This document shows, in pieces, positions 2,478 to 16,832 of a DNA stretch of 41,301 bases; within the stretch, counting starts at the first letter, position 1; the number at the start of each line of letters is the position of its first letter. Position numbers and translations under genes: made by a program. Origin of the DNA: Rhodospirillaceae bacterium (GTDB lineage: Bacteria; Pseudomonadota; Alphaproteobacteria; Bin65); NCBI GenBank assembly GCA_026709535.1, contig JAPOST010000159.1:1-41301 (forward strand). The letters are read 5' to 3'. Under the pieces are notes generated by a model. That model was given only the letters and a program-made list of their open reading frames with translations. It did not search any database and was not told the DNA's origin.

Positions 2478-3689
2478 TCACGCCATCCTGGCCTGCAGGC
2501 TTTCGTCCAGTTTCTCCAGGAATTGGTTTGTAGTAAGCCACTTCTGATCCGGACCGATCAACAGCGCAAGGTCCTTGGTCATGAAGCCGCTTTCCACAGT
2601 CTCGACGCAGACCTTTTCCAGCGTCTCGCCAAACTCGGTCACCTTCCTTGTATCGTCCAGTTGGCCGCGGAACTTCAGGCCGCGGGTCCACGCGAAGATC
2701 GAGGCGATCGGGTTGGTCGACGTTTCCTTGCCTTGCTGGTGCAGGCGATAATGCCGGGTGACCGTCCCGTGGGCGGCTTCGGCTTCCACCGTCTTCCCGT
2801 CCGCAGTCATCAGCACCGACGTCATCAGGCCCAGTGAACCGAAGCCTTGGGCCACGGTGTCGGACTGCACATCGCCGTCATAGTTCTTGCACGCCCAGAC
2901 GAAGCCGCCGGACCATTTGAGCACCGCCGCGACCATATCGTCGATGAGGCGGTGTTCGTAGACCAGACCGGCTGCCTTGAATTTGTCGGCATATTCGGCG
3001 TCGAAGACATTCTGGAACAAATCTTTGAAACGACCGTCATAAGCCTTCATGATCGTGTTCTTGGTCGACAGATAGACGTCGTAATTGCGGTCAAGGCCGT
3101 AACTGAACGAGGCATGGGCGAAGTCGATAATGGACTTGTCCAGATTGTACATGGCCATGGCGATTCCGCCGCCGGGGAAATCGAAGATCTCTTTTTCGAT
3201 TGTCTCGCCGTTCTTGCCTTCGAATCTGATCGTCAGCTTGCCTTGGCTTGGCACAACAAAGTCGGTCGCGCGATATTGATCACCGAAGGCATGGCGGCCG
3301 ATAATGATCGGCTTGGTCCATCCCGGTACCAGACGTGGCACATTCTGGCAAATGATAGGCTCGCGAAAAACCGTACCGCCCAAGATATTCCGGATCGTCC
3401 CGTTGGGCGATTTCCACATCTGCTTCAGACCGAATTCCTCGACCCGCGCCTCATCAGGGGTAATGGTAGCGCACTTCACGCCAACGCCGTAATCCTTGAT
3501 CGCGTTGGCCGCATCGATGGTGATTTGGTCCTCGGTCGCATCACGTTTCTGGATTCCGAGATCGTAGTAGCGCAGATCGATATCGAGGTACGGAAGGATC
3601 AGTTTATCCTTGATAAACTGCCAGATGACGCGCGTCATCTCATCTCCATCCATCTCGACAATGGGTTTGGCAACCGTGATCTTGTGCAT
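2478..3689 (-). CDS. icd: NADP-dependent isocitrate dehydrogenase
   Basis: 403 residues, the length of the homodimeric NADP-isocitrate dehydrogenases found in alphaproteobacteria and eukaryotes rather than the E. coli type. It oxidatively decarboxylates isocitrate to 2-oxoglutarate in the TCA cycle and makes NADPH. Visible family motifs include the start [13 protein letters not shown], the substrate-loop region [19 protein letters not shown], and [14 protein letters not shown]. The metal-binding region contains YDGDVQSD, and the cofactor region contains [12 protein letters not shown]. The ATG at 3687-3689 is the family start. It appears to be a single-gene unit, with gaps of more than 300 bases on both sides. 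Confidence 0.98.
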
Positions 3690-4011
3690 GGTGGTGTGTC
3701 CGAAGCTATCGGAAAGGAGAATGATCGGAGGAATTCGCGGCTCAGGAAGGCGCGATCAACATCAATGACAGGCTGACCATATCAGTGCTTGTTCTCGCTG
3801 CAAGGTTCTGCGGCGCCGCACGTGACGAGATTCGCCCTTACTGACGTCGGGACCCGATGTGATCTATCGGATAGGCTTCTTCGCAAGATCGCCTTGTTGG
3901 TTTTTCTCGCGCCTTGCCGTTCGCATTGGTAAATCTCGCTGGCTGGCGCCGCTCGAGTTGACGGCCAGCAAGATTACCAACGAGTAGAAACGGCTTAATC
4001 GATAGCGCTGT
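3690..4011. other. Intergenic region upstream of icd with a long stem-loop
   Basis: 322 bases separating the nitroreductase and isocitrate dehydrogenase genes. No protein is recognised. It should carry the icd promoter and contains the large imperfect inverted repeat listed separately at 3926-3980. Confidence 0.5.
3926..3980. repeat. Imperfect inverted repeat (stem-loop)
   Basis: The arm TTGGTAAATCTCGCTGGC (3926-3943) pairs with GCCAGCAAGATTACCAA (3964-3980), giving about 16 base pairs with one bulged A and one C-A mismatch around a loop of about 20 bases. It lies just past the end of the nitroreductase gene and upstream of icd. There is no T-run on either side, so a simple rho-independent terminator is not well supported. 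It could be a terminator variant, a structured icd leader or a dispersed palindromic repeat. Confidence 0.55.
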
Positions 4012-4656
4012 TCAGGCCCGAGGTGTTACCCAGCGGGACCATTTAGGCGCGTCGCTGCGCTTGTCGCGCAGGCTTCCCGGAATGCGCTGTCCGCCTTCGT
4101 CCGGAAAGACGAAGATGGCTCCCAGCAGGACTTCTGTCGTCGGGATACCAAGATACTCGAAGGTCGGCTTCTGGCGGATGAACCCTCCGCTGGACCAATA
4201 AGTCGTCAGGTTGCGTTCCGTCGCCGCCAACAGAAAGGACTGCACCGCGGCGCCGGCGGCTGCAATATGCTCCATGTTACCGATCGTCGGCTGGAAAAGA
4301 CCGTCAAACGGTTCCTCGCCGTCTGGCGGATCAGGCAGCCAGGTAGCCAGAACCAGTGCTTCGGCAGCCGCCAGCATCTGCGGCAGACGTCCCGCTTTTT
4401 CTGCATTGGCCTCGATAAATCCGATCAGCGAGCGACAGGTCTTCGTGTTGGCCATATAGAAGCGCCACGGTTCGATAGTCCGGGCGCCGTGCCAGTGCGA
4501 TCTGTGGGCTGGTTTGTGGAACGGCGCCCAGCCGGCAAGCGCGACGAGGTCTTCCAAGGTCTTGTTGTCTGTCGCCCCCCTTGACGGAGCATTCGGGTCA
4601 AACATCACCTTGGTCGTCGAGCGGGTCGAAATCGCGGTTGCAACGGGAGAAGACAT
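4012..4656 (-). CDS. Nitroreductase family protein
   Basis: 214 residues from ATG 4654-4656, a normal length for FMN-dependent nitroreductases, which use NAD(P)H to reduce nitro groups, quinones or flavins in the cytoplasm. The RSHWHGARTIEPWRFYMA segment matches the N-terminal FMN-binding region (usually R-x-x-x with EPWxF). The GAAVQSFLLAATERNLTTYWSSGG segment matches the middle helix and substrate loop, and the C-terminal LGAIFVFPDE segment is also typical. The frame is open much further upstream, to 4908, but that extension runs into the neighbouring LOG gene and has no family similarity, so I reject it. The physiological substrate is unknown. It lies 89 bases downstream of the LOG gene and may share its transcript. 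Confidence 0.88.
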   Translation of the reverse strand: MSSPVATAISTRSTTKVMFDPNAPSRGATDNKTLEDLVALAGWAPFHKPAHRSHWHGARTIEPWRFYMANTKTCRSLIGFIEANAEKAGRLPQMLAAAEALVLATWLPDPPDGEEPFDGLFQPTIGNMEHIAAAGAAVQSFLLAATERNLTTYWSSGGFIRQKPTFEYLGIPTTEVLLGAIFVFPDEGGQRIPGSLRDKRSDAPKWSRWVTPRA

Positions 4657-4745
4657 GACGGAGAGCAATCCGAAAGTGGTAAAAAGTGGTAAGTTGTGAG
4701 TATCTGGCGCGCGCGGGCAGACAAAAAAGTGGGGGAATTGCCGCC

Positions 4746-5339
4746 TCACACCTTCGCGGTTTCGAACGCTGTGTCGTGCTTGCCCGTTGACGCGAGCGCT
4801 TCGAATATGTCGTCGACGGACGGTACGATCGTCAGGAGTGAGAGATGCTCCGTGTCGGCAAAGCCTTTGTCTACGATCAACTGGAGAAGATCCAGCAAAG
4901 GCTGCCAATATCCTTCTATATCGGCCAGGATGATCGGCTTGTTGTGAAACCGCAATTGCCGCCAGGTGAGACTCTCGAACATCTCGTCCAGCGTTCCCAG
5001 ACCACCGGGCAGCACGATGAAAGCGTCGGAGCGCTGAGCCATCATCAACTTGCGTTCGTGCATCGATTCTACAACATGCAGTTCGGTGAGGTCGCGTTTA
5101 CCCTTCTCCCGGTTTTCCAAATCCCGCGGAATGATTCCGACCACCTTGCCGCCATGTGCCATGGCCGCGGCGGCGGACGCGCCCATCAAGCCAACAGACC
5201 CCCCGCCATAGACCAGATCAATTCCGCGTTCCGCCAGGCCTTGCCCCAAGGCGCTGGCCGCGGCCAGCCACGTACTGCTCACGCCTGGTCGAGAGCCACA
5301 GAATACACAGACGGTGCGGGGAAACAGGCTCAAGGGCAC
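4746..5339 (-). CDS. LOG family protein (TIGR00730 type)
   Basis: 197 residues. Members of this family hydrolyse nucleoside 5'-monophosphates at the N-glycosidic bond; plant LOG enzymes activate cytokinins this way, and bacterial members are often annotated as AMP or pyrimidine/purine nucleotide monophosphate nucleosidases. The defining PGGxGTxxE motif is seen as PGGLGTLDE at residues 111-119, with the conserved Arg-Lys pair (HERKLMM) just before it and a Rossmann GGGSVGLMG loop near 45-53. The GTG start at 5337-5339 overlaps a strong AGGGAGG ribosome site. The TTG two codons downstream (5331-5333) has better spacing and may be the real start. Substrate preference is not determinable. Confidence 0.92.
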   Translation of the reverse strand: MPLSLFPRTVCVFCGSRPGVSSTWLAAASALGQGLAERGIDLVYGGGSVGLMGASAAAAMAHGGKVVGIIPRDLENREKGKRDLTELHVVESMHERKLMMAQRSDAFIVLPGGLGTLDEMFESLTWRQLRFHNKPIILADIEGYWQPLLDLLQLIVDKGFADTEHLSLLTIVPSVDDIFEALASTGKHDTAFETAKV

Positions 5340-5568
5340 CTCCCTAATCCCTGATTACGTCTTGCCAAGAAACAGCTTGTCGTAAGGTATCATGCTTCCG
5401 ACAACCAGCTTTCTTGTCAACTGTTTGCGTTCCAATTCCGTGGCGGCGATTGTCAGGAAGCCGGCGACAGACCAGCCTGACATCGGATGACGCGTCAGCG
5501 TGGACTTTGTCGTTCGATCCTGTAGGATGCATGTTTCTGTGCAATGAATCGTTTTCGGGAGATTGTCG

Positions 5569-6030
5569 ATGGCCAGACTGCTCGTCTTGATGTCCGCCCT
5601 TGCCGGCATGATGCTGGCGGGTGTTGCATGGCTTGTTCCTGCCCAAGCCAGTGATCCGGGGAAAACGATCTTTGCCCGCAAGGCTATCATGTGGTCGATG
5701 GGCGCTCATATGAGCGGCATCAAGGCCGGTATGGCTGCGAAGAACGGGAAGTTGATCTCGGCGCACGCCCGGGCCATCGCCGCGTTGTCTCCGGCGTTCG
5801 CCTCCTTGTTCCCGAAGGGGACAGAAACCGGCAAGACCCGAGCCAAGCCCGAAATATGGCAGCAGATGGACAAGTTCAGGGCGGCGGCCGATGTGCTGCA
5901 GACCGAAGCCGGCGCACTTGCGAAAGTTGCCGAATCCGGCGACATGGCCAGGACCGGCGTACAGTTCGGCAAGACAGCCAAGCTTGGTTGTGGCGGGTGC
6001 CATTCGGTGTTCCGCGCGCCCAAGAAATGA
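5569..6030 (+). CDS. Cytochrome c556-like (cytochrome c' family), secreted
   Basis: 153 residues. The N terminus is a signal peptide (positive start, hydrophobic core, cleavage probably after AQAS near residue 27), so the protein is periplasmic. The C-terminal CGGCH near the end is the single covalent haem site. The small four-helix layout with haem at the C terminus is the cytochrome c' / c556 family (often PF01322), whose members bind gases such as NO or carry electrons. ATG 5569 follows GGGAG with seven bases between. A TTG two codons upstream is also possible but is worse placed. It is divergent from the LOG gene. The start of the mature protein contains the FARKAIMWSMGAHM segment, consistent with the axial Met region of c556 proteins. 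Confidence 0.9.
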   Translation: MARLLVLMSALAGMMLAGVAWLVPAQASDPGKTIFARKAIMWSMGAHMSGIKAGMAAKNGKLISAHARAIAALSPAFASLFPKGTETGKTRAKPEIWQQMDKFRAAADVLQTEAGALAKVAESGDMARTGVQFGKTAKLGCGGCHSVFRAPKK

Positions 6031-6222
6031 CCTTCATTAGTTGGGTTGTTGTCTGGAAAAGAGTAGCCGACCCGGTCGATCTGTTTCCGGCGCGTGCAGC
6101 ATCCAGGGGCAGCAATCGCCTGGCGGGCGCAGGTTGAATGTTGCACCGTTCACGCATTCATGCCAGCGGAGGGATTGAGCCAACGTCCTCTGCCGCGCAG
6201 CCGATTCGATACCGCCTGATCG

Positions 6223-6600
6223 TGGGTGCCGTGACCATTCCGGGCATCCTGATGCGCCTCGACTGATCACCCCGGAGAACCGGCGCGTTCTTGCAGAGCC
6301 AGATGATTGGCTGACATACTCCAAATGCGCCGCCGGGTCGGAAACCGAGGCTCATCTTCGGGATGGCGCACATACTTCATTGTCGGCAACAACGAAGCGG
6401 CGCTGCGTCCCTGCCGATTTTGACCTGGCACGGCTTCTGGAAGCGATCAACCTGCACTGGGACGAGGCAGGGTTGTGCTCAGCCTGCGCATCCACGACGC
6501 CCGCACACCGACCGAACGAGCTTCGTTGCGCCGGACATCAAGACAATCAGCCGCTGCAGATGATGGGCCCACTTTTGATGGCGTGGCGTGACTTGCGAAG
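6223..6600 (+). pseudogene. Possible eroded coding remnant, family not recognised
   Basis: The 616-base gap between cytochrome c556 and bolA has no intact gene. Protein-like stretches appear on the plus strand in different frames: one with LITPENRRVLAEPDDW (about 6257-6304), one with RTYFIVGNNEAAL (about 6366-6404), one with ADFDLARLLEAINLHWDEAG (6416-6475), and one with VVLSLRIHDARTPTERASL (6474-6530). Joined through frame changes they read like one former protein, which suggests a frameshifted pseudogene. I cannot name the family. Chance open frames in G+C-rich DNA are the alternative. Confidence 0.3.
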
Positions 6601-6646
6601 CGCGGTTTCAGGCTGGCCCTTTTACGTTACTTGACCAGAAGTCGCG

Positions 6647-6907
6647 TCAGGCCGAATCAATTTTCAACGCCAAAGCGTGGATAGGCCCAGCCAGTTCGTC
6701 CGCCAACACCTTATGAACCTGTCGCTGCCGCTCAATGCGGCTAACGCCATCAAACGCCGCAGACGTCATATGTACCCGGAAATGGCTCTCGCCCTCCGTT
6801 CGGGCGCCAACATGGCCGGCGTGCAAATGCGACTCATCAATGATTTCCAAAACCGCCGGGGAAAAGGCTCTGGTCAGTTTTTCTCGGATCGTATCAGCGA
6901 CTGTCAT
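6647..6907 (-). CDS. bolA: BolA family protein
   Basis: 86 residues, the usual BolA length. BolA proteins form [2Fe-2S]-bridged complexes with monothiol glutaredoxins and take part in iron-sulfur trafficking and stress response. The core ALEIIDESHLHAGH-like segment is present (VLEIIDESHLHAGHVG, about residues 19-34). The conserved C-terminal histidine motif normally found in RHR.VY-type segments appears here as IERQRQVHKVLADEL. The FRVHMTSAAFDGVSRI strand-turn region is typical. ATG 6905-6907 follows a strong AAGGAGG site. The gene stands alone on its strand in front of the oxygenase gene. Confidence 0.95.
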   Translation of the reverse strand: MTVADTIREKLTRAFSPAVLEIIDESHLHAGHVGARTEGESHFRVHMTSAAFDGVSRIERQRQVHKVLADELAGPIHALALKIDSA

Positions 6908-7101
6908 GAACCTTATCCTCCTTGAAAACAGGGTGGTCCATACCCTGTCCTGCTACAGACACAATTGAGAAGCGTTGATGTATTGCGTCAAGTTCAGGCG
7001 CACAGGAAAATTTCAAGTGCTGGCGTGGCGATCCCTCCCGACGGCATCGCAATTCGCGGAAATCAGTCACAAGACGAGGCAAGCGTTATGCAGAGGATGT
7101 T

Positions 7102-7935
7102 TCAGGAAGCCTCGTCCAGGAACGAACCAGAGTCCTGTAGCTGGCGGAACAGGCTGACCGAACGGGCATGAGCAGCCTTGGCTTCTTTGCTCATTTCGTG
7201 AACCAGACGCTTTTCCTCGCCGAAGACGCCAGTACGCGCCTGACCGCGCACTGTCAGGGCGGTGCGCTTCGGCGCGCCGATCTGATTGACCGACGCAGGA
7301 ATGTAACTCGTTCCTACACCAATCCGCCGGTCACCGCCGCCATTGCCGCGGGAACAGTGGATCAGGTCCGTATGGTGTAAAGACATCTCGCCGGGCTGCA
7401 ATTCCATTGGGACGCCAGTCTGGTCGTCGAACAACTTCGGTATGCCCTGACCGCGTTTGATCATATTGGAGTCGCCGGTATCGTCCTCATGCTCGAAGTC
7501 GCCCCATTTGTGGCTGCCGGGCAGTACATGGATACATCCACTCTCTGCGCTGGCGTCAGACAGCGCGACCCAGGCCGTGATGTGCAGATGCGGTTCCAAG
7601 AAGAAATACTTTCCGTCTTGGTGCCAAAGCACGTAGCTCGGTGTCCCTGGTTCCTTGATCCAGATGGTCTGATGATAGACCAGGATATCCGGCCCTATGA
7701 TATCTTCGACGGTGTCCAGAACAGCTGGATGATGCACGATTTCGTCAGCCCAGCGATACAGCAGGTAGGACTTTGATTTTTCCGGAAAGTCCATCGGTTT
7801 GCCGGCTTCTGCCTCGTGTCGCTCCAGTTCCGCGCGCAACCGCGTTACTTCCTCCGAACTCAGGACTTTAAGGGGCGCAACAAAACCATTCTCGTGATAG
7901 TGATCGACCTGTTCCTGGGATAAGCGTTTCGGCAT
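7102..7935 (-). CDS. Phytanoyl-CoA dioxygenase (PhyH) family oxygenase
   Basis: 277 residues from ATG 7933-7935. PhyH-family enzymes are Fe(II)- and 2-oxoglutarate-dependent hydroxylases of the double-stranded beta-helix fold. The iron triad is visible as H105-Q-D107 (in WHQDGKYFF) and the distal H193 (in DLIHCSRGN). An arginine after it (in DRRIGVG) can bind the 2-oxoglutarate carboxylate. So all catalytic residues are kept. The frame stays open across the neighbouring tRNA gene to 8082, but that extension is only a read through tRNA-Ala and its flank, so I reject it. Many bacterial PhyH proteins act on small molecules or lipids rather than phytanoyl-CoA. The substrate here is unknown. Confidence 0.92.
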   Translation of the reverse strand: MPKRLSQEQVDHYHENGFVAPLKVLSSEEVTRLRAELERHEAEAGKPMDFPEKSKSYLLYRWADEIVHHPAVLDTVEDIIGPDILVYHQTIWIKEPGTPSYVLWHQDGKYFFLEPHLHITAWVALSDASAESGCIHVLPGSHKWGDFEHEDDTGDSNMIKRGQGIPKLFDDQTGVPMELQPGEMSLHHTDLIHCSRGNGGGDRRIGVGTSYIPASVNQIGAPKRTALTVRGQARTGVFGEEKRLVHEMSKEAKAAHARSVSLFRQLQDSGSFLDEAS

Positions 7936-8043
7936 GGGGGATATCTTCGATCCGTATCGGCGACCTCGCGACTGTACCCTTTCGATGCTCCCGAGGAAAC
8001 GGTTCCAGGCGAAATTGGTTGACGGAGGAGTGACACGAATATC

Positions 8044-8119
8044 TGGTGGAGCCGAGGGGAATCGAACCCCTGACCTTCGCATTGCGAACGCGACGCTCTG
8101 CCGGCTGAGCTACGGCCCC
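8044..8119 (-). tRNA. tRNA-Ala (anticodon CGC)
   Basis: A complete 76-base cloverleaf read on the minus strand. The acceptor stem GGGGCCG pairs with CGGCTCC and includes the G3:U70 pair that marks alanine tRNAs. The D stem is GCTC/GAGC. The anticodon stem is TCGCG/TGCGA around loop TTCGCAA, giving anticodon CGC, which reads GCG. The T arm has GGTTCGATTCC. The discriminator base is A, and the 3' CCA is encoded in the DNA (8044-8046). It lies about 100 bases upstream of the PhyH-family gene on the same strand. Confidence 0.97.
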
Positions 8120-12342: not shown

Positions 12343-13080
12343 TTGCAGGACCGGCTGCACGAAATTCCCCGAATGATTCTTTGGCCTGACCCGACTCCTC
12401 TGGAGTCGCAGCCAAACCTGGCGGCCGCCGCGGGCGCAGCATCAATCCTCGTCAAGCGGAACGATGCCAACGATCTCGCCGTCGGCGGTAACTAAAGGTG
12501 CGACAGCTTGAATTCTACATTGGCGACGTCCGAACTCAAGGGGGCAGATACCGTGCTTGTTACAGGCGCCGGCCAATCCAATTTTGGGGCAACCGCTGCC
12601 GCGTCCCGGAAAGTCGGGATAGGTGTTCATATCCAGCTTGAAAGCCGATTGGCAAGGCGGGATCAAGACTGTCTTCGATCAGGAAACGTTCTGCTTGATA
12701 CGCTTCTGGGCACCACTCTACACCAGCATGCGGGAGGCGATGACGAGGTTGGCGCCAACCACCAACTTGAAGAAATCGCCGATAGCCTGAAACAGAACGG
12801 CCAAGTCCCGTATGTAATCTGCCTGCGCCCTGATCATCCGCCCCTTGGTGCGCTGGGCTATGTCGTGGCAGCAGAAGAACTCGTCAAACAACCGGGCGGC
12901 GCTGGAGACACAGCCAGATGAAATCTTCGTCGCTTCGGGCTCCGGCAACACCCATGCCGGCTTGTTGTACGGCTTGCGCCGGGTGGGTTGCGATATTCCG
13001 GTACAGGCATTTGCGTCCGACGGGACGCCGTTCGCGACGGTCAGCGGCGGTCCCACCATCGTCTGGCGTTTCCAGAATCC
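12343..13080 (+). pseudogene. D-cysteine desulfhydrase / ACC deaminase family, frameshifted and truncated
   Basis: A PLP-dependent gene of the DcyD/ACC-deaminase family is clear but broken. A strong AAGGAGG (12329-12335) precedes a TTG at 12343. Frame 1 reads DPTPLESQPNL and ILVKRNDANDLAVGGN, then meets TAA 12493. Single-base insertions near 12493, 12497 and 12540-12543 restore KVRQLEFYIGDVRTQG and then GADTVLVTGAGQSNF. Frame 1 then carries SGNVLLDTLLG and PLGALGYVVAAEEL. Another shift near 12880-12900 gives DEIFVASGSGNTHAGLLYGL, and one near 13003 gives GICVRRDA. The last third of the usual 330 or so residues is missing. At least five frame changes make a functional protein very unlikely. 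It lies directly upstream of the glutamine-synthetase-like gene. Confidence 0.88.
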
Positions 13081-13246
13081 GATCCAGAGTCGGGCGACCA
13101 TGATGCCGCAAGCCGGACACCTGAATTCGCCGATCAGACATGTTCATCCCGAAAATTGACAACACCGCTTCCGGAATTGGGGTTGCCTTGCAGAAACCGT
13201 TAGCCGATTTATGGTCATCGAATACCAATGAGCGGATCGGCAGCGT

Positions 13247-14731
13247 GTGAAGGGATTTATCCAGAGGCATGGCTTGGCAGCGCCAGACGACGCGATCCGG
13301 GTGTCGGACATCGCGCATCGTCTGGATGCCGAAGGGATCCGTCTCGTGCGCATGGCCTGGTCGGACAGCCACGGTCATGCCCGTGCCAAGATGGTGACCG
13401 CGGCCGCCTTCCGCAGTGCGTTGGAAGACGGATACGGATCCAACGTAGCCACGTTCACGCTCGATGCCTCGGGCGGCAGGTTGTTCAAATCCTTCACGCC
13501 GGGTGGTGGCATGGGCCTGACGGAAATGACTGGCTCGCCCAGTCTGATCCTGGTGCCCGACTTGTCGACGTTCTGCGCCCTGCCCTGGGCTGAGGGAGTC
13601 GGATGGGTTCTGTGCGACGAGTATTTTACCGACGGCCAGCCTTTCTTCTTCTCCAGCCGCCAAATCCTGCGAAAACAGGCCCGCCGACTGGCAGAGCGCG
13701 GCCAGATCCTGAACGTCGGCCTTGAGATCGAATGGCACCTCAGCCGCTTGCCGGAAAATCGACTGGACGTTCTTGAAGAGAGCGAAATCGGCGAACCAGG
13801 TAACCGTGGCCGCGCCGTTGCCGTCCGTCCGTTCGAGCCGGGGTTTTCGTATCATGCAGAAGGGGTAATCGATCGCGTGCAACCCCTATTGAGCCGGATT
13901 GAGGCGACCTGCCGGGCCTTGGGCCTGCCGCTTCGATCCATCGAAAACGAATGGGGCAGCGGTCAGTTTGAATGTACGTTTGCACCACAGGAGGCGCTCA
14001 AGGCAGCCGACGCCTGTTTCCTCTTCCGTTCTGCCGTCCGTCAGGTGTGCTGCCGCGAAGGCTTTCATGCCTCCTTCATGTGCTGGCCAAAGCTGCCCGG
14101 TGCCTATCCGAACGGCTGGCACCTGCACCAGTCGGTGGTCGATGCGGATGATGGCCGGAACCTGTGGACACCGCAGGACAGCACCGCGGCGCTGTCGCCC
14201 TTCGGGATGGCCTTTCTGGCGGGACTGATGCACCATGCTGCCGCGGCGACGGCTTTTTCCACGCCAACAATCAATGGTTATCGCCGCTTTCGCCCGGACT
14301 CGCTTGCCCCGGACCGTCCAACCTGGTGCCATGACCACAAGGGCGTGATGCTGCGGGTTCTGGGCGGGAAGGACGATCCGCCGGCAACCCGCATCGAGAA
14401 CCGCGCAGGGGAAGCCGCCGCCAATCCCTACCTCTTTGTGGCATCACAAATCGCGGCCGGGTTGGACGGCATCGACCGCAGACTCACGCCGCCACCGCCG
14501 GAAGAGGACCCTTATAATGCCGACGTTCCAAAATTGCCGAACACGCTGCCCAATGCGTTGGAGACCCTGGAAGCAAGCGAGTTGTTTGCAGACCAGTTCG
14601 GTCAGCGCTACCTGGACTACTATCTCATCCTGAAACGCGCCGAAATCGCCCGCTTCGAAGGGAGCGGCGGCAGGCACGAGGGTGAGGCGGTATCACAATG
14701 GGAGCAGGACGAATATTTTGATGCCTTCTGA
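13247..14731 (+). CDS. Glutamine synthetase family protein (gamma-glutamyl-amine ligase-like)
   Basis: 494 residues of the glutamine synthetase fold. The N-terminal beta-grasp part contains VRMAWSDSHGHARAKMV. The catalytic part has metal-binding Glu residues in GLEIEWHL, the NEWGSGQFECTFAP strand, the ATP/metal segment GWHLHQS, and the glutamate-binding arginine region RIENRAGEAAANPYLF. It is not a typical housekeeping GlnA: the adenylylation-loop pattern is not seen, and it sits with dioxygenase genes. Relatives such as PuuA, IpuC and the aniline proteins AtdA1/TdnQ ligate glutamate to an amine using ATP. I infer a gamma-glutamylation role on an amine substrate. The start is GTG 13247; the ribosome site is weak. 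The next gene begins 29 bases after its stop. Confidence 0.9.
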   Translation: MKGFIQRHGLAAPDDAIRVSDIAHRLDAEGIRLVRMAWSDSHGHARAKMVTAAAFRSALEDGYGSNVATFTLDASGGRLFKSFTPGGGMGLTEMTGSPSLILVPDLSTFCALPWAEGVGWVLCDEYFTDGQPFFFSSRQILRKQARRLAERGQILNVGLEIEWHLSRLPENRLDVLEESEIGEPGNRGRAVAVRPFEPGFSYHAEGVIDRVQPLLSRIEATCRALGLPLRSIENEWGSGQFECTFAPQEALKAADACFLFRSAVRQVCCREGFHASFMCWPKLPGAYPNGWHLHQSVVDADDGRNLWTPQDSTAALSPFGMAFLAGLMHHAAAATAFSTPTINGYRRFRPDSLAPDRPTWCHDHKGVMLRVLGGKDDPPATRIENRAGEAAANPYLFVASQIAAGLDGIDRRLTPPPPEEDPYNADVPKLPNTLPNALETLEASELFADQFGQRYLDYYLILKRAEIARFEGSGGRHEGEAVSQWEQDEYFDAF

Positions 14732-14760
14732 TCACATCTTCTGGCAGGCTTGAGAAACCC

Positions 14761-16143
14761 GTGAGCCGGATCGACTACCATCTCCGTTCTCGGCCAAGGA
14801 TGGCCGATGAAACAGACTACAGCGCCCTGATCCACGAAGATCGTGTTCACCGCTTGATTTACACCGACCCCGCCATCTTCGAAGCGGAGATGGAGAAGAT
14901 ATTCGGAGGTGTCTGGGTCTATCTGGCGCACGAAAGCCAGGTCCCGAACAACGACGACTTTGTTCTGGGCCGCCTCGGCCGGCGGCCCATCATCGTCGTA
15001 CGGGATTCGCAGGGCGAACTCAGAGCCTTGTTCAACCGTTGCCCCCACCGCGGCGCGACGGTGTGCCGACAACCTGTCGGATCAGCCCGAACCTTTCAAT
15101 GCCCCTACCATGGGTGGAGCTTTCGTAACTCCGGCACCCTGAACGGCGTACCGTGGCCAGACGGCTATGCCACGGATTTCAAGGACACCCGCTTCAATCT
15201 GGCCCAGATGCCGCGAGTCGAAAGTTATCGCGGGTTCATCTTTGGCACGCTCAATCTCGCGGCGCCGCTTCTGACTGACTATCTGGGTCCTGCTCGCCAG
15301 CCGCTGGACGAATGGCTGGATCGTCATCCTGGCGGTGTAATCCGCTTGTGCGAAGCAAACCGACTGAAGTTCAAGGGCAATTGGAAATTGGCCTACGACA
15401 ATGCTGCTGACGGCTATCACGTCGTCTTCTCGCATCGATCGCTTCTGCAGATGGAAAACCGGCTGATGTCGGAAGAGGCCAAGGGCATGGCATTCTACAA
15501 GGACAAGCCCGACGACGCGCCCATGTACGTTCACTATCTGGGCAACGGTCATCACTACAAGAACAAGCGGCCGAACATCTGCAACGAAGATCAGGAAGTT
15601 CTGCCCGGCGCACTCTGGGAGATCGAAGGACACTTTCCCGGCATGGAGGCCTACGAGGCGCGCATCCGGGACCACTTGGGCGACCGGGCGGATGCTGCGC
15701 TAGATCTTGCCTGTTCGGAGCCAGTGAACATCAATATTTTCCCCAATCTGTCAATCCTTGGCAACCACATCCAGGTTTTCCAGCCGCTCGCTGTCGACGA
15801 AACGGACACGACGTGGTTCGGTACGGCGATCGTCGACGATGACGGCTTTCTGGAAGGCCTGGCGGACGACATCAACGCGATGCGCATGCGCACCCAGGAA
15901 AGCTTTCCGAATTTCGGCGAAGTCGACGACCTCACGAATTTCGAGGAAATACAGGCTGGCCTTCATGTCATCGAGGACGAATGGGTCTACATGCACCGGG
16001 GGCTGAACCTGCCTGACCGCTTCAAGCATCTGGACGATGGCACTGTCATCGGTCCGGCAACCGATGAAGTCTTCATGAGGGAGACCTACAAGGTCTGGGC
16101 GGACCTGATGACAGCGCAACCGACCCTGGCGCTGCAGCGATGA
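14761..16143 (+). CDS. Rieske aromatic-ring-hydroxylating dioxygenase, alpha subunit
   Basis: 460 residues. The N-terminal Rieske [2Fe-2S] site is C94-P-H96 and C114-P-Y-H117. The mononuclear iron site is in NAADGYHVVFSH, with D217 bridging and H220/H225 as ligands. Such enzymes take electrons from a reductase and add O2 across an aromatic ring, or act as monooxygenases or demethylases. The frame opens at GTG 14761; ATG 14800 (MADETDYSAL) is an alternative start. The stop overlaps the start of the beta-subunit gene (ATGA), so the two are translationally coupled. The upstream glutamine-synthetase-like gene suggests an amine or glutamylated-amine substrate, by analogy with aniline dioxygenase. 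No reductase or ferredoxin gene is in the window. Confidence 0.95.
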   Translation: MSRIDYHLRSRPRMADETDYSALIHEDRVHRLIYTDPAIFEAEMEKIFGGVWVYLAHESQVPNNDDFVLGRLGRRPIIVVRDSQGELRALFNRCPHRGATVCRQPVGSARTFQCPYHGWSFRNSGTLNGVPWPDGYATDFKDTRFNLAQMPRVESYRGFIFGTLNLAAPLLTDYLGPARQPLDEWLDRHPGGVIRLCEANRLKFKGNWKLAYDNAADGYHVVFSHRSLLQMENRLMSEEAKGMAFYKDKPDDAPMYVHYLGNGHHYKNKRPNICNEDQEVLPGALWEIEGHFPGMEAYEARIRDHLGDRADAALDLACSEPVNINIFPNLSILGNHIQVFQPLAVDETDTTWFGTAIVDDDGFLEGLADDINAMRMRTQESFPNFGEVDDLTNFEEIQAGLHVIEDEWVYMHRGLNLPDRFKHLDDGTVIGPATDEVFMRETYKVWADLMTAQPTLALQR

Positions 16144-16718
16144 TCGACGTGCCTGAGACATCCTTGTATCTCACGGACCAGTACTACGCAGACACGATTG
16201 CCGCGTTTGAGGATTGTTGGGAGGATTCTCGGGAAATACTGGACGTCGGAATCCGCAATTCATGCCGGGCGTTCTTGGAACATGAGGCCCGAATTCTGGA
16301 CGAGCAACGCCTGGATGATTGGCTTGCCCTGTTTGTTGCCGAATGCGCCTACTGGATTCCCTCGACGCCGGAGGCCGGCGATCCACGCAAGGAAATCACC
16401 ATTACCTTCGATGATCGCCGCCGCCTGGAAGACCGTGTATTTCGGCTTCAGACAGATGCCGCCTGGTCCCAACAGCCAGCCTCGCGGACAAGTCGAATGA
16501 TCTCCAACGTCGCCACCTTCCATGGACCGAACGGTTCGGACATCATGGTCCGATCGGTCTTCCAGACGACGGAGTTCCGTCGGGGTGATACCCGCCGGTT
16601 CGCAGGATGCAACCGTCATCACCTGCGGACGGAAGACAATGGCTGGCGGATTGTTGCTAAGCAGGTCAATCTGATCGATTGCGATCAGAATCTGCGCAAC
16701 CCCAGCATCATTCTTTAG
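16140..16718 (+). CDS. Ring-hydroxylating dioxygenase beta (small) subunit
   Basis: 192 residues of the SnoaL/NTF2-like fold used by small subunits of Rieske dioxygenases (PF00866). Typical segments are FLEHEARILDEQRLDDWLALF, the AYWIPSTPEAGDP segment, and the C-terminal WRIVAKQVNLIDCDQ. The subunit is structural in alpha3beta3 oxygenases. Its ATG overlaps the alpha-subunit stop by four bases, so the stoichiometric partners are co-translated. It is the last gene of the three-gene set. A terminator-like hairpin follows within about 60 bases. Confidence 0.95.
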   Translation: MIDVPETSLYLTDQYYADTIAAFEDCWEDSREILDVGIRNSCRAFLEHEARILDEQRLDDWLALFVAECAYWIPSTPEAGDPRKEITITFDDRRRLEDRVFRLQTDAAWSQQPASRTSRMISNVATFHGPNGSDIMVRSVFQTTEFRRGDTRRFAGCNRHHLRTEDNGWRIVAKQVNLIDCDQNLRNPSIIL

Positions 16719-16773: not shown

Positions 16774-16832
16774 AAAAAGGCAATCAGTAGTTTGCGGTAT
16801 CCGGAAAGACGTTATGCTGATTGCGCCTTTTT
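16774..16832. terminator. Long-loop hairpin with flanking A- and T-runs
   Basis: AAAAAGGCAATCAG (16774-16787) pairs with CTGATTGCGCCTTTTT (16817-16832): 14 base pairs with a two-base bulge, ending in a T-run. The loop is about 29 bases, longer than usual. The A-run and T-run at the two ends could allow termination from either direction. It lies after the dioxygenase genes and before the PD-(D/E)XK gene, so it probably ends the dioxygenase transcript. Confidence 0.6.

What the first reader, a model, noticed from the sequence alone, without database searches (positions are those of the whole stretch)
13247..16718. Glutamine-synthetase-like ligase linked to a Rieske dioxygenase: an aniline-type 'glutamylate, then oxygenate' module with missing parts
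Three tight plus-strand genes encode a GS-family ligase and both subunits of a Rieske dioxygenase; the two subunit genes overlap by four bases. The known precedent is aniline degradation (AtdA1/TdnQ ligase, AtdA2/TdnT amidotransferase-like protein, AtdA3-A4/TdnA1A2 dioxygenase, AtdA5/TdnB reductase), where gamma-glutamylation precedes dioxygenation. Here the amidotransferase-like and reductase genes are absent from the window. Either they are elsewhere, or the module works on another amine with shared electron carriers. It could be a variant pathway for an aromatic or heterocyclic amine that has not been described.
Basis: partly seen in the sequence, partly recalled or inferred. Interest (0 to 1): 0.62.

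Follow-up and report, generated by a model that had tools for sequence, protein, structure and literature searches.

The report
Glutamate-tagging ligase paired with ring dioxygenase
Three neighbouring genes in an uncultured alphaproteobacterium most likely tag an aromatic amine with glutamate and then oxidise its ring, in a conserved but unstudied relative of the known aniline pathway that looks adapted to acid-bearing (carboxylated) amines.

Summary
A ligase of the glutamyl-organic-amine synthetase family (13247-14731), a Rieske dioxygenase alpha subunit (14761-16143) and its beta subunit (16140-16718, four-base overlap) form a tight unit that ends at a terminator-like hairpin. The ligase groups with DcaQ/TdnQ-type and NpaA1 enzymes (42-44% identity), not with GlnA or PuuA (24-27%). 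The alpha subunit belongs to the oxygenases that sit beside such ligases (41-52%); unlinked dioxygenases reach at most 36%. 'Missing parts' is the rule: the same ligase-alpha-beta triad occurs in more than 20 genomes without an adjacent amidotransferase or reductase, and ligase and oxygenase diverge together (r = 0.88). The triad is a distinct subfamily. At the tunnel position that sets aniline versus naphthylamine preference in NpaA1/AtdA1, every triad ligase has arginine; triad alpha subunits carry invariant H265, K267 and K269 where the aniline type is neutral. In three lineages the neighbours handle carboxylated aromatics (LigB-type dioxygenase, PcaB, UbiD decarboxylase). I infer a carboxylated aromatic amine as substrate (aminobenzoate to protocatechuate); the window's genome holds pcaDHGB. 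Substrate and reductase are untested. The same genome carries a second ligase + Rieske pair of another oxygenase class.

The parts
13247..14731 (+). Glutamyl-organic-amine synthetase (GoaS / gamma-glutamylanilide-synthase type ligase), 494 aa, triad subfamily; GTG start, 5 further in-frame codons upstream are open
   Evidence: (best solved relative 8wwu = NpaA1, E 4e-131)
13436..13492 (+). N-terminal loop aligned with NpaA1 residues 66-84 (the '15th motif' amine-tunnel loop), window sequence YGSNVATFTLDASGGRLFK; the Arg aligns with NpaA1 M81 / AtdA1 W81 (ends approximate to a few bases)
   Evidence: against PMC11335346
14761..16143 (+). Rieske ring-hydroxylating dioxygenase alpha subunit, 460 aa; Rieske ligands C94 H96 C114 H117, iron site D217 H220 H225 D390; triad-specific H265 K267 K269 H336
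16140..16718 (+). Ring-hydroxylating dioxygenase beta subunit, 192 aa; start overlaps the alpha stop by 4 bases (ATGA)
16774..16832 (+). Hairpin followed by a U-rich tract, 55 bases after the beta stop: probable terminator closing the three-gene unit
   Evidence: MFE -19.4 kcal/mol, z -2.45; not found by the strict pattern scan because its loop is long
12508..13159 (+). Frame-shifted, truncated remnant of a PLP-dependent (PALP, D-cysteine desulfhydrase-like) enzyme upstream; context, not part of the module

Best explanation
The three genes encode a two-step 'glutamylate, then oxygenate' module. Step 1 (inferred from family and residues): the ligase uses ATP to join the gamma-carboxyl of L-glutamate to the amino group of an aromatic amine. 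Step 2 (inferred): the alpha-beta Rieske dioxygenase recognises the gamma-glutamyl amide and dihydroxylates the ring carbon bearing nitrogen and its neighbour, giving a catechol and releasing the nitrogen, presumably as glutamine. Electrons come from a ferredoxin/reductase encoded elsewhere (the C91 ferredoxin reductase is the best candidate found). No dedicated amidotransferase is needed; a C26-type hydrolase is encoded elsewhere in the genome. The triad is a conserved subfamily distinct from the aniline/chloroaniline/naphthylamine enzymes. An invariant Arg in the ligase's amine tunnel, invariant His/Lys residues in the oxygenase and neighbours acting on carboxylated aromatics suggest an aromatic amine that carries an anionic group, most simply an aminobenzoate giving protocatechuate, which the host's own pca genes could consume. 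Estimated probability: glutamylate-then-oxygenate mechanism about 0.8; aromatic rather than other amine about 0.7; anionic/carboxylated substrate about 0.4. The stated confidence is for the mechanism and subfamily claim.
For: Ligase: best solved match is NpaA1; 42-44% to NpaA1/DcaQ against 27% PuuA and 24% own GlnA. It lacks the GlnA ammonium-site loop (MFDGSS) and the flap Glu (FEAP becomes SLAP), has the extra N-terminal tunnel loop, and keeps E232, E234, F86, W235 and has Tyr at 201 as AtdA1 does (NpaA1 numbering). Alpha: all listed plasmid alphas at 41% identity or more lie beside a ligase, and the unlinked ones sampled reach at most 36%; triad alphas form a 100/100 clade inside the ligase-linked clade (99/98). 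Co-divergence of ligase and alpha: r = 0.884 over 26 systems, 0 of 5000 permutations as high; 0.808 within 17 triads. The triad is conserved without adjacent GAT or reductase. NpaA2 (GAT) was not needed and the glutamylated amine is the direct dioxygenase substrate in the naphthylamine system (PMC11335346). Anionic substrate: Arg at position 81 in 26 of 26 triad ligase rows (24 distinct genomes), hydrophobic in aniline types, Thr in the LigXa type; H265, K267, K269 in 23 of 23 triad alphas, neutral in aniline types; LigB-type dioxygenase gene ending 57 bp upstream of the ligase in L024, PcaB above the TIGR02426 cut-off downstream in L028 with the same Pfam families at the same place in L047, UbiD decarboxylase directly upstream in three genomes of genus g184. 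The host has pcaD-pcaH-pcaG-pcaB, a ferredoxin reductase at C91 and a C26 hydrolase at C112.
Against: No enzyme of the subfamily has been assayed. The window itself has no aromatic-acid gene beside the triad; the neighbour argument rests on three other lineages, each with a different neighbour. Position 81 is placed in the tunnel only by alignment to NpaA1, and the Arg could salt-bridge to protein rather than to substrate. H265/K267/K269 have no modelled position (the structure prediction failed) and could instead face a different ferredoxin. F75, a tunnel aromatic in NpaA1, is Leu here. A dedicated reductase is absent, although NpaA5 was essential in the naphthylamine system. Monophyly of the triad ligases is only moderately supported (81/67; 86).
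Confidence: 0.72

Rival explanations
1. A plain aniline-type system for uncharged arylamines whose reductase and amidotransferase are encoded elsewhere in the genome; the charged residues are structural or drift.
For: Same enzyme families, same gene linkage and conserved E232/E234/F86/W235. Candidate ferredoxin reductase and C26 hydrolase exist in trans. NpaA1 itself has a broad substrate range.
Against: The two diagnostic changes (R at 81; H/K/K in alpha) are invariant across all triads sampled, which drift does not explain. Triad and aniline types do not intermix in either tree. Neighbours point to carboxylated rings.
Confidence: 0.22
2. A non-catabolic or non-aromatic role: the ligase glutamylates an aliphatic or natural-product amine and the Rieske enzyme performs a hydroxylation or N-dealkylation, the gamma-glutamyl group acting as a carrier as in the isopropylamine or ethanolamine routes.
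For: Related ligases act on aliphatic amines (isopropylamine and ethanolamine enzymes; PMC11335346, PMC6529630). Most triad hosts are uncultured MAGs with no known degradation phenotype. The window has no catabolic neighbour.
Against: The alpha subunit is inside a clade whose characterised members dihydroxylate aromatic rings; ring-cleavage and UbiD genes adjoin the triad in relatives; aromatic tunnel residues F86 and W/Y/F at 235 are kept in nearly all.
Confidence: 0.12
3. A decaying cluster in this organism (the upstream PLP gene is already a pseudogene), with no present function.
For: Frame-shifted PLP remnant directly upstream; the window ligase has a longer terminal branch than its relatives (0.74); a sibling copy (G003) shows one in-frame TAG.
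Against: All three window genes are open and carry every catalytic and subfamily-diagnostic residue checked, and at least ligase and alpha are kept in all six sibling species examined.
Confidence: 0.04

Closest known systems
1-naphthylamine system NpaA1-A5 of Pseudomonas sp. JS3066 (PDB 8WWU, 8WWV, 8X6Z; PMC11335346; locus L054)
   Same: GoaS ligase in one cluster with an alpha-beta Rieske dioxygenase; ligase 42% and alpha 44% identical; E232/E234 and tunnel F86/W235 kept; amidotransferase dispensable there too.
   Different: No adjacent amidotransferase (A2) or reductase (A5); tunnel F75 is Leu, M81 is Arg, V201 is Tyr; alpha has H265/K267/K269 instead of neutral residues.
Aniline/chloroaniline dioxygenase systems AtdA / TdnQTA1A2B / DcaQTA1A2B (Delftia plasmid pC1-1, locus L048)
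   Same: Same two enzyme families, ligase 44% and alpha 46% identical, ligase followed by alpha-beta on one strand.
   Different: Cluster with GAT, ferredoxin-NADP reductase and LysR regulator against a three-gene unit; hydrophobic against Arg tunnel residue; separate clades.
Actinobacterial aniline-type clusters (Dietzia L051, Rhodococcus gordoniae L052, Corynebacterium L070)
   Same: With the Nostoc protein, their alpha subunits are the closest outside the triad (about 50-52%); ligase present.
   Different: alpha-beta come first, then GAT, ligase, 2Fe-2S protein and FAD reductase; a catA gene nearby in all three implies an unsubstituted catechol product.
Second ligase-Rieske type: M. nodulans pMNOD01, Polaromonas JS666, Cupriavidus and the window genome's own contig C200 (L055, L068, L056, L082)
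   Same: GoaS ligase (43-45% to the window's) overlapping or adjoining a Rieske oxygenase gene.
   Different: Oxygenase is a beta-less LigXa/phthalate 4,5-dioxygenase-like protein, unrelated beyond the Rieske-domain region; tunnel signature K75/T81 instead of L75/R81; often with 2Fe-2S and FAD reductase genes.

Membership tests
Glutamyl-organic-amine synthetase (GoaS; includes gamma-glutamylanilide synthase, EC 6.3.1.18) | GS catalytic domain, closer to NpaA1/AtdA1-type than to GlnA | tested here: met
Glutamyl-organic-amine synthetase (GoaS; includes gamma-glutamylanilide synthase, EC 6.3.1.18) | Loss of the GlnA ammonium-site Asp50' and flap Glu; extra N-terminal amine-tunnel loop (15th motif) | tested here: met
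   alignment against own GlnA and NpaA1; criteria from PMC11335346
Glutamyl-organic-amine synthetase (GoaS; includes gamma-glutamylanilide synthase, EC 6.3.1.18) | Glutamylates an organic amine and not ammonia | not testable with these tools
   Needs an enzyme assay
Aniline/arylamine dioxygenase system (AtdA, Tdn, Dca, Npa) | Alpha subunit inside the ligase-linked Rieske clade with intact Rieske and iron ligands | tested here: met
Aniline/arylamine dioxygenase system (AtdA, Tdn, Dca, Npa) | Adjacent amidotransferase-like gene (A2/T) | tested here: not met
   No homologue of the reference GATs beside any triad at E 1e-8 or 1e-6; distant C26-family matches elsewhere in the genome
Aniline/arylamine dioxygenase system (AtdA, Tdn, Dca, Npa) | Dedicated reductase gene (A5/B) in the cluster | tested here: not met
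   None adjacent. Candidates in trans: C91 ferredoxin reductase; C139 PDR-type reductase, which sits beside another Rieske gene
Aniline/arylamine dioxygenase system (AtdA, Tdn, Dca, Npa) | Uncharged tunnel residue at NpaA1 position 81 and (mostly) Phe at 75 | tested here: not met
   Arg at 81 and Leu at 75 here; R81 in every triad ligase
Aniline/arylamine dioxygenase system (AtdA, Tdn, Dca, Npa) | Converts aniline or naphthylamine to a catechol through the gamma-glutamyl amide | not testable with these tools
   Needs an assay
Housekeeping glutamine synthetase (GlnA) or gamma-glutamylputrescine synthetase (PuuA) | Clusters with GlnA or PuuA and passes their family cut-offs | tested here: not met
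   188 of 429 bits for TIGR00653, 223 of 650 for NF045547; 24-27% identity
Benzoate or anthranilate 1,2-dioxygenase | Passes equivalog cut-offs TIGR03229 or TIGR03228 | tested here: not met
   231 of 781 bits and 187 of 672 bits

The most novel reading that the evidence does not exclude
Gamma-glutamylation followed by ring oxygenation is a general bacterial strategy that arose with at least two unrelated Rieske partners, and the triad is a dedicated route for carboxylated (anionic) aromatic amines such as aminobenzoates, turning them into protocatechuate-type catechols in uncultured alpha- and betaproteobacteria, with electron-transfer proteins encoded elsewhere. I found no description of such a route in the literature searched.
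Probability: 0.35. Interest if true: 0.66.

Novelty: new variant of a known kind. Interest (0 to 1): 0.5.

Why it matters
Characterised glutamylation-dependent dioxygenations come from pollutant degraders, often on plasmids. A triad conserved in uncultured soil and other MAGs, plus a second widespread ligase-Rieske class, suggests that tagging amines with glutamate before ring oxidation is a natural catabolic strategy older than the pollutants. Two ligase positions (R81 here, K75 in the second class) offer a direct, testable code for substrate charge and a simple way to tell these ligases from glutamine synthetases in annotation.

Tried and rejected
1) Cyt c'-LOG-nitroreductase-IDH block (window 2478-6030) as part of the module: in siblings it follows the triad, but the cytochrome gene runs convergently and the block is not beside the triad outside the genus; rejected as local synteny, rearranged in the window. 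The 219-aa minus-strand ORF 5344-6003 lies antisense to the cytochrome c' gene (5563-6030, +) and is not a gene. 2) Nitroreductase as a nitroarene-to-arylamine feeder: same block, no support. 3) AlphaFold model of alpha: mean pLDDT 37 with 13 sequences, unusable, so no fold search was made. 4) Horizontal transfer of the window triad: identities to siblings (ligase 57%, alpha 66%, beta 54%) resemble those of other neighbours (cyt c' 57%, nitroreductase 68%) though lower than IDH (85%); placement apart from siblings is weakly supported; left open. 5) FAD_binding_6 reductase family in the own genome: no match at E 1e-3. 6) Literature searches for glutamylated aminobenzoate routes or the triad: nothing relevant found. 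8) Strict promoter/terminator scan: counts no higher than in shuffles.
Full report
OBSERVATION. The window is one 41.3-kb contig (C68) of a 3.67-Mb, 203-contig genome. A hairpin with a U-rich tail follows the beta gene (16774-16832, z -2.45). Upstream lies a frame-shifted remnant of a PLP-dependent enzyme (12508-13159). The unit therefore looks like a closed three-gene operon. The promoter was not identified.

THE LIGASE. It is not GlnA: 188 bits against a cut-off of 429, 24% identical to the genome's own GlnA and 27% to PuuA, but 42-44% to NpaA1 and DcaQ. Its best match among solved structures by far is 8wwu (E 4e-131, the next 2e-43), which is NpaA1, the 1-naphthylamine glutamylating enzyme of Pseudomonas JS3066 (PMC11335346). 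The residues named in that paper agree with the JS3066 protein in locus L054, so they could be mapped. The window enzyme lacks the GlnA ammonium-site loop and flap Glu, has the extra N-terminal tunnel loop, and keeps E232 and E234 (the negatively charged amine pocket), F86 and W235; it has Tyr at 201, as AtdA1 does. Two tunnel positions differ: F75 is Leu and M81 (Trp in AtdA1) is Arg. In NpaA1 mutants, position 81 governs the aniline/naphthylamine preference.

THE OXYGENASE. All Rieske and iron ligands are present. Among plasmid records, every listed alpha subunit at 41% identity or more lies next to a ligase, while the unlinked ones sampled stop at 36%. In a maximum-likelihood tree the ligase-linked alphas separate from other dioxygenases (99/98) and the triad alphas form a 100/100 clade. 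NCBIfam benzoate and anthranilate models score far below their cut-offs.

A CONSERVED TRIAD. Searching one genome per species with the ligase alone gave 24 loci. Sixteen hold ligase-alpha-beta in that order on one strand, two more run out of contig within or just after alpha, four end inside or just after the ligase, and two belong to another type. The hosts include Rhodospirillales, Xanthobacteraceae, Hyphomicrobiales, Devosia and Betaproteobacteria MAGs. All six sibling species examined carry at least ligase and alpha, and so do genomes of two other families, one of them a single-contig assembly (G307). No amidotransferase or reductase homologue adjoins any of them. Ligase and alpha distances correlate at r = 0.884 over 26 systems (0 of 5000 permutations as high) and 0.808 within 17 triads. 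In the phylum-wide sample of 398 genomes only the window's own genome held a ligase scoring in the triad range, so the triad is uncommon.

WHAT THE 'MISSING PARTS' MEAN. In the naphthylamine system the amidotransferase NpaA2 was unnecessary, the glutamylated amine was the direct dioxygenase substrate, and the reductase NpaA5 was required. The triad therefore lacks one dispensable part and one necessary part. In the window's genome the best reductase candidate is a PF07992/PF14759 ferredoxin reductase on C91 (37% to the Dietzia reductase, E 2e-76), and a C26 gamma-glutamyl hydrolase family match lies on C112. A TdnB-like reductase on C139 sits beside a different Rieske gene and is less likely the partner. 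These assignments are inference.

SUBSTRATE. Three lines converge. (i) Arg occupies ligase position 81 in 26 of 26 triad rows (24 distinct genomes); aniline-type enzymes have I, M, V or F. (ii) Triad alphas have invariant H265, K267 and K269 where aniline-type alphas have T/S/M, hydrophobic residues and Gln (23 of 23). (iii) In relatives the neighbours act on carboxylated aromatics: a class III extradiol LigB-type dioxygenase gene ends 57 bp before the ligase with an HpcH-type aldolase next to it (L024); an isochorismatase-family gene and a 3-carboxymuconate cycloisomerase (PcaB, 359 bits over a cut-off of 356) follow the triad in L028, with the same Pfam families in L047; a UbiD-family decarboxylase directly precedes the ligase in three genomes of genus g184. 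The window's genome itself encodes pcaD-pcaH-pcaG-pcaB. The simplest reading is an aminobenzoate-like substrate and a protocatechuate-like product. Caveats: position 81 is placed by alignment only; the alpha residues could serve a different ferredoxin; each lineage has a different neighbour and the window has none.

A SECOND LIGASE-RIESKE CLASS IN THE SAME GENOME. Contig C200 carries another ligase (44% to the window's) whose gene overlaps that of a LigXa/phthalate-4,5-dioxygenase-like Rieske oxygenase without beta subunit. Its oxygenase is 54-56% identical to those on M. nodulans, Cupriavidus and Polaromonas JS666 plasmids. Four sibling species carry a second ligase of matching similarity, and in G003 it was confirmed beside the LigXa-type gene. 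Among alphaproteobacterial ligase loci fetched from a sample of 385 genomes, 18 of the 20 that are neither triad nor aniline type had a LigXa-type oxygenase gene adjacent. These ligases have a third signature, K at 75 and T at 81. So the GoaS clade has paired with two unrelated oxygenase classes, each with its own tunnel signature.

VERDICT. The finding is real and the aniline precedent is right in mechanism. It is a new, conserved variant, not an incomplete aniline operon. Shown: families, residues, linkage, conservation, co-divergence. Inferred: both reactions, the electron donor and the substrate.

Noticed in passing
L082 (own genome C200:9000-18000) 4175-6966, - strand: Second ligase overlapping a LigXa/phthalate-4,5-dioxygenase-like Rieske gene, with a GST gene just downstream; a widespread second class of ligase-Rieske pairs with K75/T81 tunnel signature.
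   Followed up: partly
window 2478-6030: IDH, nitroreductase-like (4012-4656), LOG/lysine-decarboxylase-like (4746-5339) and cytochrome c'-like (5563-6030, +) genes form a block that adjoins the triad in sibling genomes but lies about 7 kb away here: a local rearrangement.
   Followed up: partly
window 12508-13159: Frame-shifted remnant of a PLP-dependent D-cysteine desulfhydrase-like gene directly upstream of the ligase.
   Followed up: partly
L117, L118, L119 (genus g184): Conserved MFS transporter - UbiD - ligase - alpha - beta neighbourhood, with a TauD-family gene downstream in L118, plus a second alpha-beta dioxygenase nearby and a 334-aa gene without Pfam match.
   Followed up: partly
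L080 (own genome C139:4000-14000) 2527-6951: Separate cluster: LigXa-type Rieske oxygenase (strong PF19301 match), PDR-type reductase, GFO/IDH/MocA oxidoreductase and NMT1-like protein; a further oxygenase system.
   Followed up: no
L092 (G003:C50:391527-392999): The sibling ligase copy is reported with one in-frame TAG: a broken gene or a sequence error.
   Followed up: no
window 7102-8119 (-): PhyH-family oxygenase ORF whose listed start (8082) lies inside a tRNA-Ala(CGC) gene (8044-8119) on the same strand; the true start is probably further downstream.
   Followed up: no
L067 (Prescottella equi plasmid) 3017-7485: Ligase of the same family beside an amidase, an AmiS/UreI-type transporter and a GAT but with no Rieske gene listed nearby: a possible amine route without ring oxygenation.
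   Followed up: no
L120 (G114:C2) 3735-4550: HalD/WelO5-like halogenase-family gene about 1.4 kb beyond the beta gene of a triad.
   Followed up: no
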